From Microbulbifer celer (GTDB taxonomy: Bacteria; Pseudomonadota; Gammaproteobacteria; Pseudomonadales; Cellvibrionaceae): a stretch of 64,000 bases of DNA. The notes beneath the pieces are model-generated. The model had not been told where the DNA came from and did not search any database. It saw only the letters and a program-made list of their open reading frames with translations. The position numbers were made by a program, and so were the translations under genes. This document shows positions 5,606-40,701 of this stretch, piece by piece. The stretch spans positions 1,515,501 to 1,579,500 of the forward strand of contig NZ_CP087715.1 in assembly GCF_020991125.1 (NCBI RefSeq). Direction: 5' to 3'. The first letter of the stretch is position 1, and each line of letters starts with the position of its first letter.

Positions 5606-6991
<1,386 letters not shown>

Positions 6992-7213
6992 GCAGTTTGT
7001 CTCGCCTTAAAGTCTTGTCTAATTGTAGTTTCCGGCTGATATCGTCCGAGCCGGCCGGTGGCCGGCGAAAGTCGACGACAAATTCGCGCAAGCGGACAGA
7101 CGTTGCAACACGTTGGGGCGAGATCAAAATTATATTTGGTGGGGTAGGGGTATAGGGCAACAAACCACTAGTTTGGCGGGCTTTGAGAGTGGGATTATTG
7201 CGGACAAAGTGGC

Positions 7214-7231
7214 GGCCCCTGGTCAGGGGCC
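7214..7231. other. Hairpin between cmoB and sdaA
   Basis: GGCCCCT-GGTC-AGGGGCC is a perfect 7-bp stem with a 4-base loop about 55 bases downstream of the cmoB stop. It lacks a T-tract, so it is at most a weak terminator or an RNA 3'-end stabiliser. The rest of 6992-7285 shows nothing I recognise. Confidence 0.35.
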
Positions 7232-7260
7232 TTAGCTGGCTCAACCGCGTCAAAGGGCCT

Positions 7261-7296
7261 CAGCCACTTAGGGAGCCTCAGCCACTTAGGGAGCCT
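7261..7296. repeat. Perfect 18-bp tandem duplication across the cmoB stop codon
   Basis: Two head-to-tail copies of CAGCCACTTAGGGAGCCT lie at 7261-7278 and 7279-7296. The cmoB stop codon (7286-7288, minus strand) sits inside the right copy, so the duplication repeats the stop region without altering the protein. Looks like a recent replication-slippage event. Confidence 0.9.
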
Positions 7297-8263
7297 CGGC
7301 AACCAGGGTCGCCCGCAACGGGGCCGGATGGCCCTCAACGGTTTTGCTGTGGTCGTCGGGGTCGAGAAAGTCCACCAGCGACTCGAAGCGCATCCAGTCG
7401 GTACTGCGTTGCTCTTCCAGGCGGGTTTTGTCCAGATCGACGGTGCGTGGGTTTACAAATCCGCACTTGCGCAGCCAGCTTTCCAGAGTGGCCGTGCTGG
7501 GAAGGAACCACACATTGCGCATCTTCGCGTAGCGCCCTTCGGGAACCAGGCAGGCACCCGGACCGCCGTCGATTACGAGCGTCTCCAGCAGCAACTGGCC
7601 ACCGGGGCGCAGGGTTTCCCGCAGTTCCCGCAAATGGTCCAGGGGAGAGCGCCGATGGTAGAGTACGCCCATGGATAGCGTGGTATCAAATGCCTGTAGT
7701 TGGGGCGGGATCGCCTCAATACCGAGGGGTAGTACGTCTACCGGTTTGTCCATGCCCAGGTATTTTTTCAGTGCGTAGAACTGGGCAACGAACTTGGCGG
7801 AGGGATCGATCCCCAGAACCCGTCGCGCACCGGCCCCAAACAGGCGCCAACAGTGATATCCGCTGCCACACCCTACGTCCAGTACCAGGCGGTTATCCAG
7901 GTCGTCCAGGTGGGGGGCTACACGGTCCCATTTCCAGTCCGAGCGCCACTCGGTATCGATATGTAAATCGAACAGGCTCCATGGACCCTTGCGCCATGGA
8001 TGCAGGGCGCGCAGCTGCTGCTCCAGCTGTCGCAGCTGTTCGCTGGTGGCATCGCCTGCGCACCCGGCGCGGACCACCGGGTCGTAGCTGACGCTGCTGG
8101 GCACAATATCCGGCAGACTGTCGAAAGCCGCCTGCCAGTCCGGCAGGTCGCCCCAGCGCTCCGGCGCGAGGCCGGCAGCAACCTGGTTGGGTAAAGAGGG
8201 CAGCCAGGAGCGCAGAGCAGGGGTGTGCTGCAGGCCGGCGTAGAGCGGGGTGTAGTCGATCAT
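7286..8263 (-). CDS. cmoB: tRNA U34 carboxymethyltransferase CmoB
   Basis: A 325-residue enzyme that transfers the carboxymethyl group of carboxy-SAM to 5-hydroxyuridine at tRNA position 34. Typical features are the N-terminal WRKGPWSLFDLHIDTEWRSDWKWDR region, the SAM fold VLDVGCGSGYHCWRLFGAGA, and the LSMGVLYHRRSPLDHL segment. Length matches E. coli CmoB. It follows cmoA by 20 bases in the same operon. A tandem duplication overlaps the stop codon. Confidence 0.95.
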   Translation of the reverse strand: MIDYTPLYAGLQHTPALRSWLPSLPNQVAAGLAPERWGDLPDWQAAFDSLPDIVPSSVSYDPVVRAGCAGDATSEQLRQLEQQLRALHPWRKGPWSLFDLHIDTEWRSDWKWDRVAPHLDDLDNRLVLDVGCGSGYHCWRLFGAGARRVLGIDPSAKFVAQFYALKKYLGMDKPVDVLPLGIEAIPPQLQAFDTTLSMGVLYHRRSPLDHLRELRETLRPGGQLLLETLVIDGGPGACLVPEGRYAKMRNVWFLPSTATLESWLRKCGFVNPRTVDLDKTRLEEQRSTDWMRFESLVDFLDPDDHSKTVEGHPAPLRATLVAEAP

Positions 8264-8283
8264 CGGTCAGGGATTCAGTCGCG

Positions 8284-9012
8284 TTATTTGATGGCGATCA
8301 GCGATGCAAAGTTGAAACACTGGAACCAGACATCGACGCTGTTGAAGCCGACGCTTTTCAGGCGTTCGCGGTGGTCGTGCAGTGTTTCCGGGATCAGCAC
8401 ATTTTCCAGGGCGCTACGCTTCTGGGCAATTTCTAGGGCACTGTAGCCGTTGGCCGCTTTAAACGCATGGTGCAGGTCAATCATCAGCTCCTGGTGATCG
8501 CCATCGGAAAACGCGACTTTCTCCGACAGGATCAGCACGCCGCCCGGGCGCAGTCCGTCGTAGATTTTCTGTAGAATCTCCCGGCGTTCGCTGGTGGGGA
8601 TGAACTGCAAAGTGAAGTTCAGCACCGCCACGGAGGCATTCGTGATGGGCACGTTCTGCAGGTCGTCACAGATCAACTGCACCGGTACCTGGCCGCTGTC
8701 TGCGGCCAGTATGGTGCGGGCCTGCTGGATCATAGCCTCGGAATTGTCCACGGCGAAGATTTCACACTCCGCAGCGGGAATACGATGGCGCATAGCGAGG
8801 GTGGCGGCACCCAGGGAGCAGCCCAGGTCGTAACAGCGACTGCCGGATTGCGCGAAGCGCTCGGCCAATGTGCCAATCATGGCCACAATGGTGGTGTAAC
8901 CCGGCACCGAGCGCTGGATCATATCGGGGAAAACTTCGACCACTTTCTGGTCGAAGCTGAACCCGGCCACTTCTCCCAGTGGCTTGGCAAAAATGTTGTC
9001 TTTTTCGCTCAC
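8284..9012 (-). CDS. cmoA: Carboxy-S-adenosyl-L-methionine synthase CmoA
   Basis: A 242-residue enzyme that makes carboxy-SAM from SAM and prephenate, the donor used by CmoB. The Rossmann motif is [16 protein letters not shown], followed by [14 protein letters not shown] and LNFTLQFIP. Its ATG overlaps the stop of the M16C peptidase gene by four bases, so the order of transcription is peptidase, cmoA, cmoB. Confidence 0.95.
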
Positions 9013-33184: not shown

Positions 33185-33338
33185 GACGGCCTCCATTGAG
33201 CCGGTCAGCCGGGGATGGTGTCTCCGGTGTCCGGGGATCTTGTTGTTATGTGCCCTCTATTCTTAGACATCTTCAGCGGCCACCGGCAGTGCGGAATGGA
33301 CCTGCTTGTGCCCAAAAGCCAATAAGGGCTACACTTTT

Positions 33339-33356
33339 TGTAAAGATAAGTTTACA
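33339..33356. promoter_or_regulatory. Perfect TyrR-type box
   Basis: TGTAAA-N6-TTTACA with six spacer bases, the canonical palindrome of TyrR/PhhR regulators. It ends where AGGAGG begins, 19 bases before the start of the TyrR-like gene, and about 155 bases before phhA. Its place fits autorepression and control of phhA. Confidence 0.85.
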
Positions 33357-33374
33357 GGAGGCGCGGGTTTTCCA

Positions 33375-34820
33375 ATGAGAGTTGAAATTACCTGTAGTAA
33401 CCGCGTGGGTATCTTGCAGGAAATCATGGCTATCTTCGGTGAATATAGGGTGAATATAACGTCCGGTGAGCTTGGAGGTGATGACGGGGATAAGGTGTAC
33501 CTGGCCGCCCCCGGATTACTGATGACCCAATACCAGACCATCGAGCGCGCCCTGAGCCGGGTTCCGGGGTTGCGGCGGGTCCGCCGGATTGAGCTGATGC
33601 CCTCGGAGCGGCGCCACTTTGAGCTGGATACTCTGTTGCAGCATGTCGTGGACGAGCCGGTGCTGTCGGTAGACCCCGAAGGACGCATCATCGCTGCCAA
33701 CCTCGCGGCAGCAAAAGCCTGCGGCGTCAGCCAGGGGCAGCTGGCGGGGATGCAGCTGCAGCGCTTTGTGCCCAGGTTGCAGCTCGACGCGTTACTGGAA
33801 GGCTACACGGTGCCGCGCTACGGGTTGCCGGTCACCCTGCGAGGGAAGACTTATCGGCTGGATTGGTCGCCCATCGCTCTGCGGGAAAACCCGGCGGGCC
33901 CGGAGTCCCTCGCGGGTGCCGTGCTGACCCTGGCTCCCGTAGAGGCCTCGTATTTTGAACCGGGAGTACAGGGTGGCTCGGCCAACTTCGTATCCGACAG
34001 TTCTCCACCGGTTCTGTGGGATTCCGGTCGGCGCCGAGAGGCCTGCCTCCGGCTCCAGCAGTTGGCACCACTGTCAGAACCCTTGCTGATCATCGGCGAG
34101 CGGGGTGCAGGCAAAACCACTTTTGCCGCGGCGGCACATCACCTTTCGCCACTGGCGGATCGCTGTGGTGCGCGCTGGCTTGCCTGCGACAGGGTCGCCG
34201 AGCTGTCTAAGTGTGCGGATGACGTCGTCATCATCGATGACCTGGATTTGTGGTCGCCCGAGGGACAGATTCAGCTGGTTAGCGCAATGCGGCAGAAGTC
34301 CGCGGGCAGACGGCTGATTGCCACTGTGGCATCCGTCGACAAGCTGGCCCCGGCTTTATTGCAGTTCCTATCCACGCTGACTCTTCGGCTGCCCCCGCTG
34401 CGTACGATGCGCCCCGTACTGGGTGCGTTTGCCAGCAGGATCCTTGCAATGCAGGGAGAAACGGTGATGCTGGACGAGGGTGCGCAAGGCGCACTGATGC
34501 TTTCAGACTGGCCGAATAACTTTTGCGGTCTGACCGCAGTCCTGCTTGCAGGCTCGGAACATGCCCGCAAGCGGGGCTCTGGCACGCTTGTCCGTGAAGA
34601 TTTACCTGGTCTGATGACTGAAACGCGCCTGCCATGGCACGCCTGGGGAGAGGGACTCGGTTACCGGGAGATGATGGAAAAGATAGAGCGGGCGCTATTG
34701 GAAGAGTTTACCCGTACCCAGCCCTCTACACGGGAATTGGCCCGACGGCTGGGCATTTCCCATACCGCCGTGGCCAACAAGTTGCGCAAATACGGGCTTA
34801 ACGTTAAGCACCCGAGTTAG
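33375..34820 (+). CDS. TyrR/PhhR-like aromatic amino acid regulator with reduced AAA+ domain
   Basis: A 481-residue regulator. Domains in order: N-terminal ACT (MRVEITCSNRVGILQEIMAIF), PAS-like ligand domain (about 80-185), a P-loop ATPase with Walker A GERGAGKTTF at 241-250 (K247) and Walker B VVIIDDLDLW, and a C-terminal Fis-type HTH (RELARRLGISHTAVANKLRKYGL). The stretch between Walker A and B is only about 30 residues, so the GAFTGA sigma-54 contact loop is absent. It should therefore act as a sigma-70 regulator, as E. coli TyrR does. Start ATG 33375; AGGAGG is 13 bases upstream. Confidence 0.88.
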   Translation: MRVEITCSNRVGILQEIMAIFGEYRVNITSGELGGDDGDKVYLAAPGLLMTQYQTIERALSRVPGLRRVRRIELMPSERRHFELDTLLQHVVDEPVLSVDPEGRIIAANLAAAKACGVSQGQLAGMQLQRFVPRLQLDALLEGYTVPRYGLPVTLRGKTYRLDWSPIALRENPAGPESLAGAVLTLAPVEASYFEPGVQGGSANFVSDSSPPVLWDSGRRREACLRLQQLAPLSEPLLIIGERGAGKTTFAAAAHHLSPLADRCGARWLACDRVAELSKCADDVVIIDDLDLWSPEGQIQLVSAMRQKSAGRRLIATVASVDKLAPALLQFLSTLTLRLPPLRTMRPVLGAFASRILAMQGETVMLDEGAQGALMLSDWPNNFCGLTAVLLAGSEHARKRGSGTLVREDLPGLMTETRLPWHAWGEGLGYREMMEKIERALLEEFTRTQPSTRELARRLGISHTAVANKLRKYGLNVKHPS

Positions 34821-36621: not shown

Positions 36622-37290
36622 ATGATGAAGCAGGTTGTCAGTAGTGTGATTTTCGCAGTTGGTGTTCTGGCCGGCTGTGGGGCCAGCGAGGATTCAGAAC
36701 AGAACAATATAGAGGCAAATACTCCCAATCTGACCAGCGAAACGCCCAGGACGCAGACGGCGTTGGGGGAGGCCGCAACTCCGGCATTGGATTGCAGTAA
36801 ACCTGACGATTCCATTGAAGAAATGGTGTGCGCTGACAGTGAGCTGGCAATGCTCGATCGCAAATTGGAACTGGTGTATCAAACTGCGCTCATGTCTCCG
36901 AAAGGGAAGGGCGATAGCTGGCTGAAAGCCAGCCAGATCGGCTGGGTAAAGGCGCGCGCTGAGTGCCGGGCGGCGACGGATAAACGCCCGTGTGTGCTGA
37001 ACAGCTACCAGCGCCGTATTGCGGAACTACAGGCCCTGTATTCGCTGGTGCCAGGCAATGGCCCGGTCGTTTATCGCTGCAGCGAGGGAGATGTCACTGC
37101 GACCTATTACCAGACCGACCCACCCAGTGCGGTGGTGGAATATGGTGGTAAGCAATCTTTGATGTTTCTGCAGCCCAGTGGCAGTGGCGCGCGCTACGAA
37201 GGCAGAAATGAGAGCCTGTGGGAGCATCAGGGGGAGGCCAGCGTTATCTGGGGGCACGGCGCGGCGGAAATGCGTTGTAAAATCAATTAA
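36622..37290 (+). CDS. Lipoprotein fusing LprI-like and MliC-like lysozyme-inhibitor domains
   Basis: A 222-residue lipoprotein with lipobox VLAGC (Cys20). After a Thr/Ser-rich linker (about 25-55), residues 56-135 match LprI (DCSKPDDSIEEMVCADSELAMLDRKL, WVKARAECR), and the C-terminal 80 residues look like the MliC fold (VYRCSEGDVTATYYQ, ASVIWGHGAAEMRCK). Both domains inhibit lysozyme in other bacteria, so the protein should protect peptidoglycan from outside lysozyme. Start ATG 36622 has GGGAGCGG upstream. An inverted repeat follows downstream. Confidence 0.82.
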   Translation: MMKQVVSSVIFAVGVLAGCGASEDSEQNNIEANTPNLTSETPRTQTALGEAATPALDCSKPDDSIEEMVCADSELAMLDRKLELVYQTALMSPKGKGDSWLKASQIGWVKARAECRAATDKRPCVLNSYQRRIAELQALYSLVPGNGPVVYRCSEGDVTATYYQTDPPSAVVEYGGKQSLMFLQPSGSGARYEGRNESLWEHQGEASVIWGHGAAEMRCKIN

Positions 37291-37293
37291 TCT

Positions 37294-37348
37294 AGGGAAC
37301 CTCTGATCAGGTCACGCTGAGGCATTGCGGGCTTGATCAGGGTTCCCT
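37294..37348. repeat. Inverted repeat between the LprI-MliC gene and the cstA-like gene
   Basis: Arms 37294-37309 (AGGGAACCTCTGATCA) and 37334-37348 (TGATCAGGGTTCCCT) pair fully apart from one extra base, around a 24-base spacer. It lies four bases after the upstream stop and 38 bases before the cstA-like start. It may be an RNA hairpin at the 3' end of the upstream gene or a small repeat copy. Confidence 0.7.
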
Positions 37349-37386
37349 GGTCGTTAGTTAGATAGAACCATAATAAGGACGTTTTC

Positions 37387-39054
37387 ATGAGCGCGATTTT
37401 ACTGATGTTGCTCGGCCTCGGGGGCATGGCGGCCGGCTACTTCTTTTACTCCCGCTACATCGCCGAGCGCATCTACCGCTTTGATCCCGATTTCATTACC
37501 CCGGCTCATGAGTACGACGACGGCATCGACTATGTGCCCACCAACAAGTTTGTACTCTGGGGGCATCACTTTACGTCGGTTGCCGGTGCAGCGCCGATTG
37601 TGGGGCCGGCTATTGCGGTGATCTGGGGCTGGCTGCCGGCGTTCCTGTGGGTAGTGTTTGGTACCGTTTTCTTCGCTGGTGTGCACGATAGTGGCGCTAT
37701 CTGGGCCAGCGTACGCAATCGGGCGTTGTCCGTAGGTGCGCTTACCGGCCACGTGGTGGGCAAGCGCGCCCGCAGCATTTTCATGATCGTTATCTTTCTC
37801 GTGTTACTGATGGTCAACGCGGTCTTCGGCGTGGTGATTGCGCGGCTATTGATGGAAAACCCGGGTTCGGTGTTGCCCATCTGGGGTGCGATTGCAGTGG
37901 CGCTAGTTATCGGGCAGTTGATCTATCGGTTTAAATTCAATCTGCCGCTGGTATCCCTGTTTGGGGTGGCCGCGCTCTATGCGCTGATCTATCTCGGCCC
38001 TCAGATTCCCATGGCGCTGCCGGAAACCGTTGGTGGGCTTTCTGCAAATGCGGCCTGGATTCTGATTCTGTTTGCATACGCCGCGATTGCCTCTCTGCTG
38101 CCGGTCTGGGTGCTGCTGCAGCCAAGGGATTACATCAATGGCCTGCAGTTGTTTGTGGGGTTGATCCTGCTGTATTCCGCTGTGGCCATTGGTAACCCCG
38201 AGATTGTGGCGCCGATGATCAACCACCAGGTACCGGTAGGGACGCCGTCCATCGTGCCGTTGCTGTTCGTCACCATCGCTTGCGGGGCGATCTCCGGGTT
38301 TCACGGGCTGGTAGCCTCGGGCACCACATCCAAGCAATTGAATAAAGAAACCGATGCGCGCTTTGTCGGCTACTTCGGTGCGGTGGGCGAGGGCGCGCTT
38401 GCGTTGGCAGCGATCCTCGCGGCTACGGCCGGGTTTGCCACCCTGGGGGAATGGCAAGAAGTTTATAGCGGGTTCGGCCAGGGCGGTGTTCAGGCCTTCG
38501 TCGATGGCGGAGCGACCATTTTGAGCCAGGGGACGGGCATCAGTGCTGCTGTGGCGGGGACCATGCTTACGGTCATGGCGGCACTGTTTGCCGGTACTAC
38601 CATGGACACGGGGCTGCGATTACAGCGCTATATTTTCCAGGAGTTTGGTGAAATCTACGGTATCCGCTGGCTCGGTCGTCCGTTACCGGCGACCCTGATG
38701 GCGGTGGGGTGCTGTGTATTGCTGGCGTTTGGTGCCGGCGGTGCCGACGGCTCTGGTGGGTTGCTGATCTGGCCATTGTTCGGAACCACCAACCAGTTAC
38801 TGGCAGGGCTGACACTGCTGGTGATCACAGTAATGCTGGTGCGCCTGAAGCGGCCGGTGTGGGTTACCCTGATTCCGCTTGTGTTCCTGTTGTTGATGAC
38901 ATTGGCCGCGCTGTTGATACAGCTCAATGAGTTCTATCAGAAGAAAGACTGGTTCCTGCTTTCCGTCGATCTGGTGGTTCTGATCGCGGCAATACTGGTC
39001 ACCCTGGAGTGTATTTCGGTATTCCGTAAACCGACAGAGGTTGAGGAAACCTGA
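37387..39054 (+). CDS. CstA-family peptide/pyruvate transporter (short form)
   Basis: A 555-residue membrane protein of the CstA (carbon starvation A) family, with about 14-16 helices. Markers are YFFYSRYIAERIYRFD, PTNKFVLWGHHFTSVAGAAPIVGPAIAVIWGW, FHGLVASGTTSKQLNKETDA and the WPLFGTTNQLLAGLTLL region. E. coli CstA is about 700 residues, so this is the shorter form. CstA proteins take up peptides or pyruvate. It is followed at 33 bases by a small CC-ending protein and then an ArsA-type ATPase, which suggests one transcript. Confidence 0.88.
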   Translation: MSAILLMLLGLGGMAAGYFFYSRYIAERIYRFDPDFITPAHEYDDGIDYVPTNKFVLWGHHFTSVAGAAPIVGPAIAVIWGWLPAFLWVVFGTVFFAGVHDSGAIWASVRNRALSVGALTGHVVGKRARSIFMIVIFLVLLMVNAVFGVVIARLLMENPGSVLPIWGAIAVALVIGQLIYRFKFNLPLVSLFGVAALYALIYLGPQIPMALPETVGGLSANAAWILILFAYAAIASLLPVWVLLQPRDYINGLQLFVGLILLYSAVAIGNPEIVAPMINHQVPVGTPSIVPLLFVTIACGAISGFHGLVASGTTSKQLNKETDARFVGYFGAVGEGALALAAILAATAGFATLGEWQEVYSGFGQGGVQAFVDGGATILSQGTGISAAVAGTMLTVMAALFAGTTMDTGLRLQRYIFQEFGEIYGIRWLGRPLPATLMAVGCCVLLAFGAGGADGSGGLLIWPLFGTTNQLLAGLTLLVITVMLVRLKRPVWVTLIPLVFLLLMTLAALLIQLNEFYQKKDWFLLSVDLVVLIAAILVTLECISVFRKPTEVEET

Positions 39055-39087
39055 CCCGGAAAACAACACAACAGGAGGTTGTGGACT

Positions 39088-39450
39088 GTGGGAAACGAAA
39101 TCAGAGAGTTGCGCGAATCCTGTAAAGCTGGAGATGAAGATGGCTCTAGTGGCGCTGTTTCGGGACAGACCAGGTCAGATCTTCCAAGAAATTTGAAACT
39201 GGTATTTTCCAGAATCGGGCGTCAGTTAGAGGCGTTTTACAATGCGCCCTATCGTCAGGCTATCGCGCGGGCCGAGCGCGACGAAGAAGATCTGTTTCTG
39301 TTGCTCGTCTATGGCGAATCTCTGGGAATTCCCAATCCCGCCGCGTTCTATATGCTGGAGTTACAACCGCTCTTGCTGGAGCGCTTTCATCAGTGGCATA
39401 AGCGGATGGGAATGGAGCGCTCCCCGCTGGATGAATTTCGCTGCTGCTGA
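39088..39450 (+). CDS. Small protein ending in Cys-Cys (cory-CC-star-like)
   Basis: A 120-residue soluble protein. The N-terminal 40 residues are polar; the rest is helical (AERDEEDLFLLLVYGESLGIPNPAAFYMLELQPLL) and the protein ends RCC-stop. I recall a family called cory-CC-star for proteins of this size with a terminal CC found beside CstA- and ArsA-like genes, but I cannot verify the match here. The terminal cysteine pair suggests metal or thiol chemistry. I chose GTG 39088 because AGGAGG lies ten bases upstream; a TTG at 39079 is too close to it. It sits between the transporter and the ATPase. Confidence 0.72.
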   Translation: MGNEIRELRESCKAGDEDGSSGAVSGQTRSDLPRNLKLVFSRIGRQLEAFYNAPYRQAIARAERDEEDLFLLLVYGESLGIPNPAAFYMLELQPLLLERFHQWHKRMGMERSPLDEFRCC

Positions 39451-39476
39451 CTTCAAACTTCAAAGGGGAACAGAGC

Positions 39477-40538
39477 ATGGCGAGCATTGACCTGCAATCA
39501 CTCCTTCGGCACCGGCTCTTGATGGTCGGTGGCAAAGGTGGCGTGGGTAAAACCTCGATCGCGGCCTCCCTGGCTCTCATTGCAGCAAAGCGCGGCCGCC
39601 GAACGCTACTGGTATCCACGGATCCGGCGCACAATCTCAGTGATATTTTTCAGGTGCCACTCGGGCCTGATAGTAAAACGATCGCGCACAATCTGGACGC
39701 CGTAGAGCTATCACCGGAGCGCGAGCTGGATGAGTATCTCGAGAGCATCCGCAAACAGATGTTGCCCCATGTCGCGGTAGGCATGCGTCCGGCGCTGGAG
39801 CGGCAACTTCAGTCGACCCGTCACTCTCCCGGTGCCGAAGAGGCCGCGCTGCTGGAGCGCATTACCTACCTGATGGATCAGAGGGAAGAGTACGACCTGC
39901 TGATCTTCGATACCGCACCCACCGGCCACACCCTGCGCCTGCTTTCACTGCCCCAGACAATGGCGGCGTGGAGCGCGGGACTGCTGGCCCAGAAGCAGCG
40001 CAGCAAGGGGCTGGCTTCCCTGCTTGCCCACCTGGACCCTGGAAGAGACATCAATAACCCACTGGCGGAGCCGGAAAAGCGGCAGCCAGGCGCTTCGAAT
40101 TCTCCTGTGCTGGCACCAATGGAGGCGCGAGAGCAGCGTTTTCGTCGCGCTGCAAAGTGCCTGACCGATACGACGGAATCAACTTTCCTGTTTGTGATGA
40201 CACCAGAGCGCTTGCCGCTATTGGAAACCGGCCGCGCGGTAAAAGCGCTGTCAGAAAAAGGGGTATCCATCGCCGGTGTCTTGTGTAATCGGGTGCTTCC
40301 TCCGCAGGCGGAGACGGTGGGCTTTCTGAAAGCGGTGCTGCATCAGCAGCGGACGGTACTGGCGGAGTCCGAACGTGTATTCAAAAAGATTCCACAAGGA
40401 CAGTTGGCGCTGATGGAAAATGCAGTTGCGGGCAGGGAAGGGGTAGAGTTGTTCGCCAAAGAACTTGAGCAGGTTTTGGACGGGGCGTTGAAGCAGTCTG
40501 TCGAGGCCGGCAGATCCTCCGCCGATGCGGCAGGCTAG
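39477..40538 (+). CDS. ArsA/Get3 (TRC40)-type ATPase
   Basis: A 353-residue P-loop ATPase of the SIMIBI class. The deviant Walker A GGKGGVGKTS at 18-27 has both signature lysines (K20, K25), LVSTDPAHNLSDIF is switch I, and FDTAPTGHTLRLLSLP is switch II. It is a single-ATPase-domain protein, unlike double ArsA. The only two cysteines (in AAKCLTD and GVLCNRV) do not form the CxxC zinc motif of eukaryotic Get3. In this position the ATPase probably works with the CstA-like protein and the CC protein. The stop codon TAG lies in the end of a palindromic repeat. Confidence 0.88.
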   Translation: MASIDLQSLLRHRLLMVGGKGGVGKTSIAASLALIAAKRGRRTLLVSTDPAHNLSDIFQVPLGPDSKTIAHNLDAVELSPERELDEYLESIRKQMLPHVAVGMRPALERQLQSTRHSPGAEEAALLERITYLMDQREEYDLLIFDTAPTGHTLRLLSLPQTMAAWSAGLLAQKQRSKGLASLLAHLDPGRDINNPLAEPEKRQPGASNSPVLAPMEAREQRFRRAAKCLTDTTESTFLFVMTPERLPLLETGRAVKALSEKGVSIAGVLCNRVLPPQAETVGFLKAVLHQQRTVLAESERVFKKIPQGQLALMENAVAGREGVELFAKELEQVLDGALKQSVEAGRSSADAAG

Positions 40539-40701
40539 TGGTCCATGCGGAAAATTCTGTAACCGATCACTTCGCCACAGACTCCAGGGCGACGCTGAAA
40601 AAGCTTGAATTAACGCTGCTAGTCCTGCGCTTTTTCAACGCCACCCTGGAGCCTGTGGCTGTGTGCTTTAGTTACCGAATTTCCCGCATGGACCACTAGC
40701 C
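40533..40701. repeat. 169-bp near-perfect palindromic (MITE-like) element
   Basis: The outer arms 40533-40563 and 40671-40701 pair over 31 bp with two mismatches; inner arms 40575-40603 and 40630-40658 pair over 29 bp with four mismatches. The ends read GGCTAG...CTAGCC. There is no coding capacity. The same end sequence is found once more at 3480-3499. In both cases the TAG in the end is the stop codon of the upstream plus-strand gene. A tetranucleotide CTAG at the tips may reflect the insertion target. Confidence 0.85.

What the first reader, a model, noticed from the sequence alone, without database searches (positions are those of the whole stretch)
37387..40538. Three-gene unit: CstA-like transporter, small CC-ending protein, ArsA/Get3-type ATPase
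Seen: a 555-residue CstA-family protein, a 120-residue protein ending in Cys-Cys, and a single-domain ArsA-type ATPase with both signature lysines lie in tandem with gaps of 33 and 26 bases. Known: CstA imports peptides or pyruvate without an ATPase; Get3/ArsA proteins insert tail-anchored proteins or drive arsenite efflux. Inference: the ATPase and CC protein may assemble, gate or supply metal to the transporter, which would be a new type of transport module. I recall a family named cory-CC-star for the middle protein but no defined function.
Basis: partly seen in the sequence, partly recalled or inferred. Interest (0 to 1): 0.7.

Follow-up and report, generated by a model that had tools for sequence, protein, structure and literature searches.

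The report
Transporter with cysteine-tail adaptor and ATPase
Three adjacent genes encode a CstA-type membrane transporter, a small protein ending in two cysteines and a Get3/ArsA-type ATPase; this trio recurs in many bacteria and was already described in 2010, and the small protein likely does for this transporter what YbdD does for E. coli CstA in pyruvate uptake, with the ATPase predicted to load it.

Summary
CstA (37387-39054), a cory-CC-star protein (39088-39450) and a single-domain ArsA/Get3-type ATPase (39477-40538) lie in tandem. Of the best 80 relatives fetched, 80 small proteins end in Cys-Cys and 70 loci show the complete trio. In 8 loci CstA is not next door; all 8 genomes carry a CstA elsewhere, 7 of them the same short type. 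The trio is not new: Castillo and Saier (PMC2963123, 2010) described it as CstA-CstX-ArsA and proposed that CstX couples transport to ATP hydrolysis. E. coli-type CstA has a small partner, YbdD/YjiX, unrelated by profile, that also ends in Cys-Cys and is required for pyruvate uptake (PMC5847655). In 21 of 50 YbdD loci, all from two families, a YjiA-type GTPase follows, of the same SIMIBI class as the ATPase here; in 0 of 20 others it does. My best reading: Cory is the accessory subunit CstA needs and the ATPase loads it through its tail. The trio is well supported; the mechanism is inference. The ATPase lacks the Get3 zinc motif, conserved cysteines and ars neighbours, which argues against arsenic efflux.

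The parts
37387..39054 (+). CstA-family transporter, 555 aa, short type (E. coli CstA is 701 aa); predicted membrane protein with 15 hydrophobic segments
   Evidence: the only CstA protein found in the genome
38281..38283 (+). Cys299 of CstA (CGAISGFH motif), in 77 of 77 Cory-linked, 7 of 7 unlinked and 25 of 25 YbdD-type CstA, and 6 of 9 CstA without a partner
38713..38715 (+). Cys443 of CstA, in 74 of 77 Cory-linked and 7 of 7 unlinked CstA; Trp in 25 of 25 YbdD-type CstA
39073..39078 (+). AGGAGG, likely ribosome-binding site for the Cory gene
   Evidence: sequence
39088..39450 (+). cory-CC-star protein (very probably CstX of Castillo and Saier), 120 aa from GTG; predicted helical, no strong membrane segment
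   Evidence: NF041419 125 bits; AlphaFold2 helices 34-78, 84-106, 115-118, pLDDT 80, pTM 0.42; highest Kyte-Doolittle mean 1.25
39442..39447 (+). TGC TGC codons of the C-terminal Cys-Cys, followed by TGA
   Evidence: CC in 231 of 232 listed homologues and 80 of 80 loci
39477..40538 (+). single-domain TRC40/Get3/ArsA-type ATPase, 353 aa, without the CxxC zinc motif; its relatives share no conserved cysteine
40533..40701 (+). 169-bp palindromic repeat at the end of the unit, overlapping the ATPase stop; a repeat family of this genome, not a part of the module

Best explanation
This is a three-part CstA transport unit in which the small Cys-Cys-ended Cory protein likely acts as the accessory subunit that CstA needs, as YbdD does for E. 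coli CstA, and the Get3/ArsA-type ATPase is predicted to use ATP to load that subunit onto the transporter through its two-cysteine tail. Shown: the three genes are linked, or mostly kept together when unlinked, across many genomes; the CC tail is nearly invariant; YbdD, unrelated by profile, has the same tail and the same place after CstA; a SIMIBI-class NTPase gene follows Cory in nearly all loci seen and follows YbdD in a minority (two families). Published: E. coli needs both CstA and YbdD for pyruvate uptake. Inferred: the substrate here is pyruvate or a similar small nutrient; Cory binds CstA; the ATPase binds Cory; ATP binding and hydrolysis drive loading or release; the tail thiols bind a metal or form the contact. 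The step most likely to be wrong is the direction of the ATPase's action (loading rather than gating or energising).
For: Gene order: trio in 70 of 80 loci; 1 more is cut inside CstA by the contig end and 1 runs into a transposase-like frame and the contig end after Cory. Retention without linkage: in 8 loci Cory and ATPase stand without CstA; 8 of 8 genomes carry a CstA elsewhere, and 7 of 8 carry the short type, all 7 of which fall among Cory-linked CstAs in a tree. The class sample has CstA in 42 of 274 genomes. Class sample: all 6 Cory genomes have a short CstA; of the 6 genomes with a single-domain ATPase over 150 bits, 5 have it right after Cory. Phylum sample: 7 of 398 have Cory; the 5 not already seen all show the trio. 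Parallel system: CstA beside YbdD in 49 of 50 loci, YbdD tails CC in 48 and CPC in 2, YjiA-type GTPase on the same strand right after YbdD in 21 of 50, all 21 with CxCC. E. coli btsT-yjiX-yjiA; co-regulation of the Salmonella cognates (PMC3875573, passages). CstA and YbdD both required for pyruvate uptake (PMC5847655, passages). Get3 (PMC10248533, passages) and COG0523 (PMC2770081, passages) are both SIMIBI NTPases. Distance matrices of the three proteins correlate at r 0.79-0.84 over 72 loci, shuffled maximum 0.305.
Against: No interaction, transport or ATPase assay exists for this trio in what I read. The GTPase parallel is narrow: all 21 YbdD-GTPase loci come from two families (f3 and f177), 0 of 20 class-sample YbdD loci have a neighbouring YjiA-type GTPase, and YjiA relatives do not track YbdD there: 7 of 22 YbdD genomes and 4 of 6 Cory genomes have one anywhere. 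One of the 8 unlinked genomes (G279, 2.6 Mb) shows only a YbdD-type CstA, in two frames, with YbdD beside it, and no short CstA. G171 has CstA and Cory but no ATPase in the 2 kb to the contig end and no strong single-domain match elsewhere. 9 of 42 CstA genomes of the class sample have neither partner, so CstA can do without. Cory and YbdD show no profile similarity (hhalign probability 1.3%); their common role rests on position and tail only. Linked genes share history, so the distance correlation is expected even without contact. Cory and YbdD never shared a genome in the samples (class 6 and 22 of 274; phylum 7 and 67 of 398), but only about one overlap is expected by chance in the phylum sample, and G274 and G276 hold both CstA types, so replacement is not shown. 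An E. coli yjiA deletion showed no changed chelator sensitivity (PMC10763504, passages).
Confidence: 0.45

Rival explanations
1. The ATPase energises CstA directly: the trio is an ATP-driven pump in which Cory (CstX) couples ATP hydrolysis to transport, as Castillo and Saier proposed.
For: Published proposal with 26 instances; analogy with ArsA-ArsB; same gene linkage as above.
Against: BtsT is annotated a pyruvate:H+ symporter, and CstA-YbdD pairs exist with no such ATPase or GTPase next to them (29 of 50 loci; 20 of 20). CstA therefore need not be ATP-driven.
Confidence: 0.2
2. The ATPase is a Get3-like chaperone that inserts or assembles the membrane protein CstA (or Cory) itself.
For: Family TRC40/GET3/ArsA, 243.8 bits; best single-domain relative of known structure 3zq6, E 2e-49.
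Against: CstA has about 15 hydrophobic segments and so no single C-terminal anchor; Cory has no strong membrane segment. CxxC is absent from 86 of 86 distinct linked ATPases, although some Get3 proteins work without it (PMC10248533, passages).
Confidence: 0.15
3. The ATPase and Cory are an energy sensor that gates CstA, shutting or opening uptake with ATP supply.
For: CstA is a starvation-response transporter in E. coli (established knowledge); both NTPase classes cycle with nucleotide; the NTPase is missing from some loci, as expected of a regulator.
Against: It does not explain why YbdD is required for uptake in E. coli. No regulatory gene travels widely with the trio; a response regulator is in 13 of 83 loci.
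Confidence: 0.14
4. The unit exports arsenite or another soft metal, with Cory as an ArsD-like metal carrier.
For: ATPase in the ArsA family; a CC tail could bind soft metals.
Against: No conserved Cys in the ATPase; no gene family other than the trio recurs in more than 15 of 83 loci within about 5 kb (the clusters were not all annotated); single domain, below the ArsA equivalog cut-off, 148 against 650 bits. Castillo and Saier report no arsenic genes in such operons.
Confidence: 0.03

Closest known systems
CstA-CstX-ArsA operons (Castillo and Saier 2010, PMC2963123)
   Same: Same three genes, single-domain ATPase of about 330 aa, small protein of about 90 aa; their Table 1 includes Idiomarina baltica OS145, which is locus L087 here and carries CstA-Cory-ATPase. 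Cory is thus very probably their CstX.
   Different: They give CstX one membrane segment (archaeal cluster) and say it is never in an operon without cstA; here 8 of 80 loci have Cory and ATPase away from CstA. The parts I read do not mention its CC tail, and YbdD has 0 hits. The parallel with YbdD and YjiA is added here.
E. coli CstA-YbdD and BtsT-YjiX-YjiA
   Same: CstA-family transporter, then a small protein ending in Cys-Cys, then (for btsT) a SIMIBI-class NTPase gene.
   Different: YbdD/YjiX belongs to PF04328 and is not detectably related to Cory; CstA is the long type, a separate clade; the NTPase is a G3E GTPase with CxCC, not a Get3/ArsA-type ATPase.
Get3/TRC40 targeting ATPases
   Same: Single domain, deviant Walker A GKGGVGKT, DTAPTGHT switch.
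   Different: No CxxC zinc motif; linked to a transporter and a CC-tailed protein.
ArsA arsenite-pump ATPase
   Same: Same Pfam family PF02374.
   Different: One domain, no conserved Cys, no ars genes seen beside it.

Membership tests
CstA family (PF02554) | score over the curated cut-off | tested here: met
   450.6 bits, cut-off 27
E. coli-type pyruvate symporter CstA (NF011590) | score over the equivalog cut-off | tested here: not met
   238.6 bits, cut-off 1188
CstA pyruvate transporter | transports pyruvate | not testable with these tools
   no assay; inferred from E. coli only
cory-CC-star (NF041419) | score over the equivalog cut-off | tested here: met
   125 bits, cut-off 80
cory-CC-star (NF041419) | C-terminal Cys-Cys | tested here: met
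YbdD/YjiX (PF04328) | match to the family profile | tested here: not met
   no PF04328 match to the protein; none in the genome; hhalign probability 1.3%
YbdD/YjiX (PF04328) | small protein after CstA with CC or CxC at the C-terminus (works-like test) | tested here: met
   22 of 25 YbdD-type CstA loci, 48 CC + 2 CPC of 50 YbdD loci; Cory 80 of 80
TRC40/GET3/ArsA family (TIGR00345) | score over the subfamily cut-off | tested here: met
   243.8 bits, cut-off 135
Get3 with zinc clamp | CxxC motif | tested here: not met
   0 of 86 distinct linked ATPases; the site where 3zq6 has DCEFC aligns with ETVGFL
Get3 | inserts tail-anchored proteins | not testable with these tools
   no assay
ArsA arsenite pump ATPase | two tandem ATPase domains and equivalog score | tested here: not met
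   one domain of 353 aa; TIGR04291 148.2 bits, cut-off 650
ArsA arsenite pump ATPase | three metal-binding cysteines | tested here: not met
   no column with more than 17 Cys among 91 ATPase rows
CstA-CstX-ArsA operon type (2010) | cstA, small gene of about 90 codons and single-domain arsA in tandem | tested here: met
   PMC2963123
CstA-CstX-ArsA operon type (2010) | one transcript | not testable with these tools
   gaps of 33 and 26 bases only suggest it

The most novel reading that the evidence does not exclude
CstA transporters are switched on by a two-cysteine-tailed subunit that a SIMIBI NTPase must load, and evolution built this loader twice: YbdD/YjiX with the GTPase YjiA, and Cory with a Get3-type ATPase. 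In the Cory version the ATPase lacks the CxxC zinc clamp of its Get3 kin, and the Cory tail supplies the missing thiols in trans, making a shared metal site whose making and breaking is the switch.
Probability: 0.15. Interest if true: 0.78.

Novelty: new member of a known kind. Interest (0 to 1): 0.47.

Why it matters
YbdD, YjiX, YjiA and Cory/CstX are widespread proteins whose molecular jobs are not established in what I could read. If two unrelated small proteins with the same Cys-Cys end serve the same transporter family, and a SIMIBI NTPase is recruited beside each, then the tail is the working part and one simple experiment (cysteine-to-serine changes in the tail plus uptake) tests both systems. 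It would also give a client to an orphan GTPase (YjiA) and a non-arsenic, non-tail-anchor role to a bacterial Get3/ArsA-type ATPase.

Tried and rejected
Homology of Cory and YbdD: three hhalign modes gave probability about 1.3%; dropped, with the caution that the Cory profile had only 2.3 effective sequences. A metal role for the ATPase itself: disfavoured after no conserved Cys was found. Solved relatives: none for CstA (E up to 10) or Cory (profile, E up to 1). Defence library: only a weak match for the ATPase (mad8, 17.6 bits). Other recurrent neighbours: beyond the trio no gene cluster recurs in more than 15 of 83 loci. Strict exclusion of Cory and YbdD: not claimed; overlap was zero in both samples but not significant, and G274 and G276 carry both CstA types. 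Gene replacement in evolution: not shown; the CstA tree was the quick method without bootstrap, it warns of long branches, and the Cory-linked group needs 3 changes because some partnerless CstAs fall inside it. A general rule that YbdD operons carry a GTPase: rejected, 21 of 50 from two families, 0 of 20, and no genome-wide tie. The search for Get3, ArsA and CstA together found no paper and first made the trio look unpublished; the wider search found the 2010 paper.

One search shows that G279 has only a YbdD-type CstA in two frames, so the count is 7 of 8. It also shows that 5 of the 91 ATPase rows are the same gene fetched twice (86 distinct). The probability of the novel case was lowered from 0.17 to 0.15 because the GTPase parallel is confined to two families.

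Rows dropped before counts: ATPases outside 290-450 aa; CstA pieces under 480 aa. Of the 42 CstA genomes of the class sample, 3 were not judged for a partner (G174 and G200 end inside CstA, G251 has a broken frame). YbdD loci: 50 of the 73 places were examined (30 given by the tool, 20 chosen by me down the list, so biased to high scores), and 20 of 22.
Full report
1. What is there. The window lies in a single 4.35-Mb contig, probably a Microbulbifer, since the nearest named Cory homologues are from that genus. On the + strand lie a 555-aa CstA-family protein (37387-39054), a 120-aa protein ending in Cys-Cys (39088-39450, GTG start with AGGAGG in front) and a 353-aa ArsA/Get3-type ATPase (39477-40538), with gaps of 33 and 26 bases. 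Family assignments are clear: PF02554 450.6 bits; NF041419 'cory-CC-star protein' 125 bits against a cut-off of 80; PF02374 235.3 bits and TIGR00345 243.8 bits. It is the only CstA found in the genome and the genome has no PF04328 (YbdD) match. PF25952 is given for Cory in the protein database, although the hmmscan copy of Pfam listed nothing.

2. Conservation. All 80 end in Cys-Cys. The complete order CstA, Cory, ATPase on one strand holds in 70 of 80, with median gaps of 12 and 8 bases by my start calls. Of the other ten, one contig begins inside CstA (L098), one runs into a transposase-like frame and the contig end after Cory (L139; the frame's name is recalled), and eight have Cory and ATPase without CstA next to them. 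Of 232 Cory homologues listed in two protein searches (best 120 of 636 and of 3109 hits), 231 end in CC; the exception P0179 ends SC. The residue before CC varies (R, K, S, G, H and others). By contrast 1 of 532 window frames of at least 40 aa ends in CC. The family reaches Alphaproteobacteria and Bacillota on plasmids and Acidobacteriota and Gemmatimonadota. Haloferax volcanii has a match below the cut-off.

3. Retention without linkage. The eight loci without a neighbouring CstA gave a test. All eight genomes carry a CstA elsewhere, whereas 42 of 274 genomes of the class sample have any CstA. Seven have the short type, and all seven fall among Cory-linked CstAs in a tree. The eighth, G279 (2.6 Mb), shows only a YbdD-type CstA in two frames with a YbdD frame beside it, and no short CstA; whether the assembly is incomplete is not known. 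In several of these loci Cory and ATPase sit among genes that look like smpB, a sodium-dependent transporter, ratA and rnfH (names recalled from the sequences, not from a family search). No other gene cluster recurs in more than 15 of 83 loci around the trio.

4. The ATPase is tied to Cory. In the class sample 6 of 274 genomes have Cory. Six genomes have a single-domain ATPase over 150 bits; five have it directly after Cory and the sixth, G134, is a distant one at 157 bits, in a genome without Cory or CstA matches. Other matches over 150 bits are frames of 587-1063 aa, consistent with two domains. One of the six Cory genomes, G171, has CstA and Cory but no ATPase beside them. In the phylum sample 7 of 398 genomes have Cory, including two seen before; all five new loci show the trio. 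One genome of the same genus (G391) and one of the same family (G455) lack it, so the unit is patchy.

5. The ATPase is not a standard Get3 or ArsA. Among 86 distinct linked ATPases (91 rows), 83 keep GKGGVGKT and 73 keep DTAP[TA]GHT. None has CxxC, 35 have no cysteine at all, and no column has more than 17 cysteines in 91 rows. In the alignment with the archaeal structure 3zq6 the place of its DCEFC is taken by ETVGFL. Some Get3 proteins also work without CxxC (PMC10248533, passages). It fails the ArsA equivalog (148 against 650 bits).

6. The parallel with YbdD. E. coli YbdD ends GGARCC and YjiX ends GGMRCC. E. coli needs CstA and YbdD for constitutive pyruvate uptake: the cstA and ybdD deletions took up 13% and 20% of wild type and the double deletion 25% (PMC5847655, passages). 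In the class sample PF04328 is in 22 of 274 genomes, all 22 with CstA. Of 25 YbdD-type CstA loci, 22 have a small frame ending CC or CxC within 900 bases downstream; in the other three the contig or the stretch ended (L035, L161) or YbdD lay elsewhere in the genome (L037). Two more CstA genomes (G013, G070) have a CC-ended small frame there, unmatched by the profile. Nine CstA genomes have neither partner. In sequence Cory and YbdD are unrelated as far as profile comparison shows. YbdD-type CstAs form one group with SH-aLRT 100 in a quick tree.

7. The NTPase parallel. In E. coli btsT is followed by yjiX and, 10 bases on, by yjiA, a P-loop GTPase. I examined 50 of the 73 YbdD places of the phylum sample: 49 have CstA in front, 48 tails are CC and 2 are CPC, and 21 have a YjiA-type GTPase directly after on the same strand, each with a CxCC motif; none has an ATPase like the window's. 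All 21 come from two families (11 from f3, 10 from f177). 0 of 20 class-sample YbdD loci have it (four of these had under about 1.7 kb to look at). YjiA relatives (E up to 1e-10) occur anywhere in 7 of 22 YbdD genomes and 4 of 6 Cory genomes of that sample, so there is no general tie. In Salmonella the three cognates fall together in yehU and yehT mutants (PMC3875573, passages). COG0523 and Get3 both belong to the SIMIBI class (PMC2770081 and PMC10248533, passages). [quoted passage not shown] that paper found no chelator phenotype for its deletion, which does not help a metal role.

8. Prior art. Castillo and Saier (PMC2963123; abstract, section 3.2, figure legends and Table 1, and other passages) found 26 cases of CstA with an ArsA homologue, 24 with a small CstX, no CstX without CstA, single-domain ATPases of about 330 aa, no arsR, and no conserved ArsA cysteines in single-domain ATPases. 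They proposed that CstX couples CstA transport to ATP hydrolysis. Idiomarina baltica OS145 is in their table and is L087 here, so Cory is very probably CstX. Their text has no hit for YbdD. The search for 'cory-CC-star' found no paper, and no title or abstract start in the listings compares Cory/CstX with YbdD or the ATPase with YjiA; searches listed nothing. Only openly licensed papers were searchable, and two relevant COG0523 papers were not held.

9. Mechanism. I commit to this: Cory is the accessory subunit CstA needs, and the ATPase loads it through the CC tail. The CC tail is the most constant end of two unrelated small proteins in the same place, so it is likely the working part. The NTPase is often present but absent from some loci, which fits a loader or maturation factor better than the motor of an obligatory ATP-driven pump. 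The Cory model is helical (pLDDT 80, pTM 0.42), with the tail at the end of a short last helix. Cory-linked CstAs have a diagnostic Cys443 (74 of 77, and 7 of 7 unlinked) that is Trp in all 25 YbdD-type CstAs; it is a candidate contact but lies in a predicted membrane segment and nothing here shows it touches Cory. The correlation of evolutionary distances (r 0.79-0.84 over 72 loci, shuffled maximum 0.305) is expected of any co-inherited genes and counts for little.

10. Verdict. The new and testable element is the double occurrence of transporter and CC-tailed small protein, with a SIMIBI NTPase beside each in at least part of the loci.

Noticed in passing
window 40533-40701: 169-bp palindromic element touching the ATPase stop codon; eight near-identical full-length copies (92-100%, this one included) plus partial and more distant ones in the genome, MITE-like.
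   Followed up: partly
window 37288-37352: Hairpin-like stretch between the upstream gene and cstA, with partial matches at three other places in the genome.
   Followed up: partly
window 36622-37290: Upstream gene encodes a protein combining LprI-like and MliC lysozyme-inhibitor domains.
   Followed up: no
window 33306-34820: TyrR/PhhR-like regulator with ACT, PAS and HTH domains; the PF00158 sigma-54 domain match is just below its cut-off.
   Followed up: no
L117, L122, L147 (about 5850-8370): Acidobacteriota loci carry a second, more distant CstA just after or overlapping the ATPase frame; the three form their own group.
   Followed up: partly
L133 (6373-8055): Two closely scoring CstA genes flank one Cory-ATPase pair in a Natronospirillum genome.
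   Followed up: no
L028, L162, L170, L263, L264: Some YbdD-type proteins end Cys-Pro-Cys instead of Cys-Cys, a natural test of what the tail needs.
   Followed up: partly
P0022, P0050, P0061 and others: Several Cory proteins are named 'DNA helicase' in public records.
   Followed up: no
L158 (3690-3977): In Cytobacillus spongiae an extra gene of unknown function (288 bases) stands between CstA and Cory.
   Followed up: no
L125, L115 and similar loci, upstream: A response regulator and a larger gene lie divergently upstream of cstA; the regulator family is in 13 of 83 loci.
   Followed up: no
G171 (L062): CstA with a Cory ending GVCC but no ATPase beside it: a natural ATPase-less variant.
   Followed up: partly
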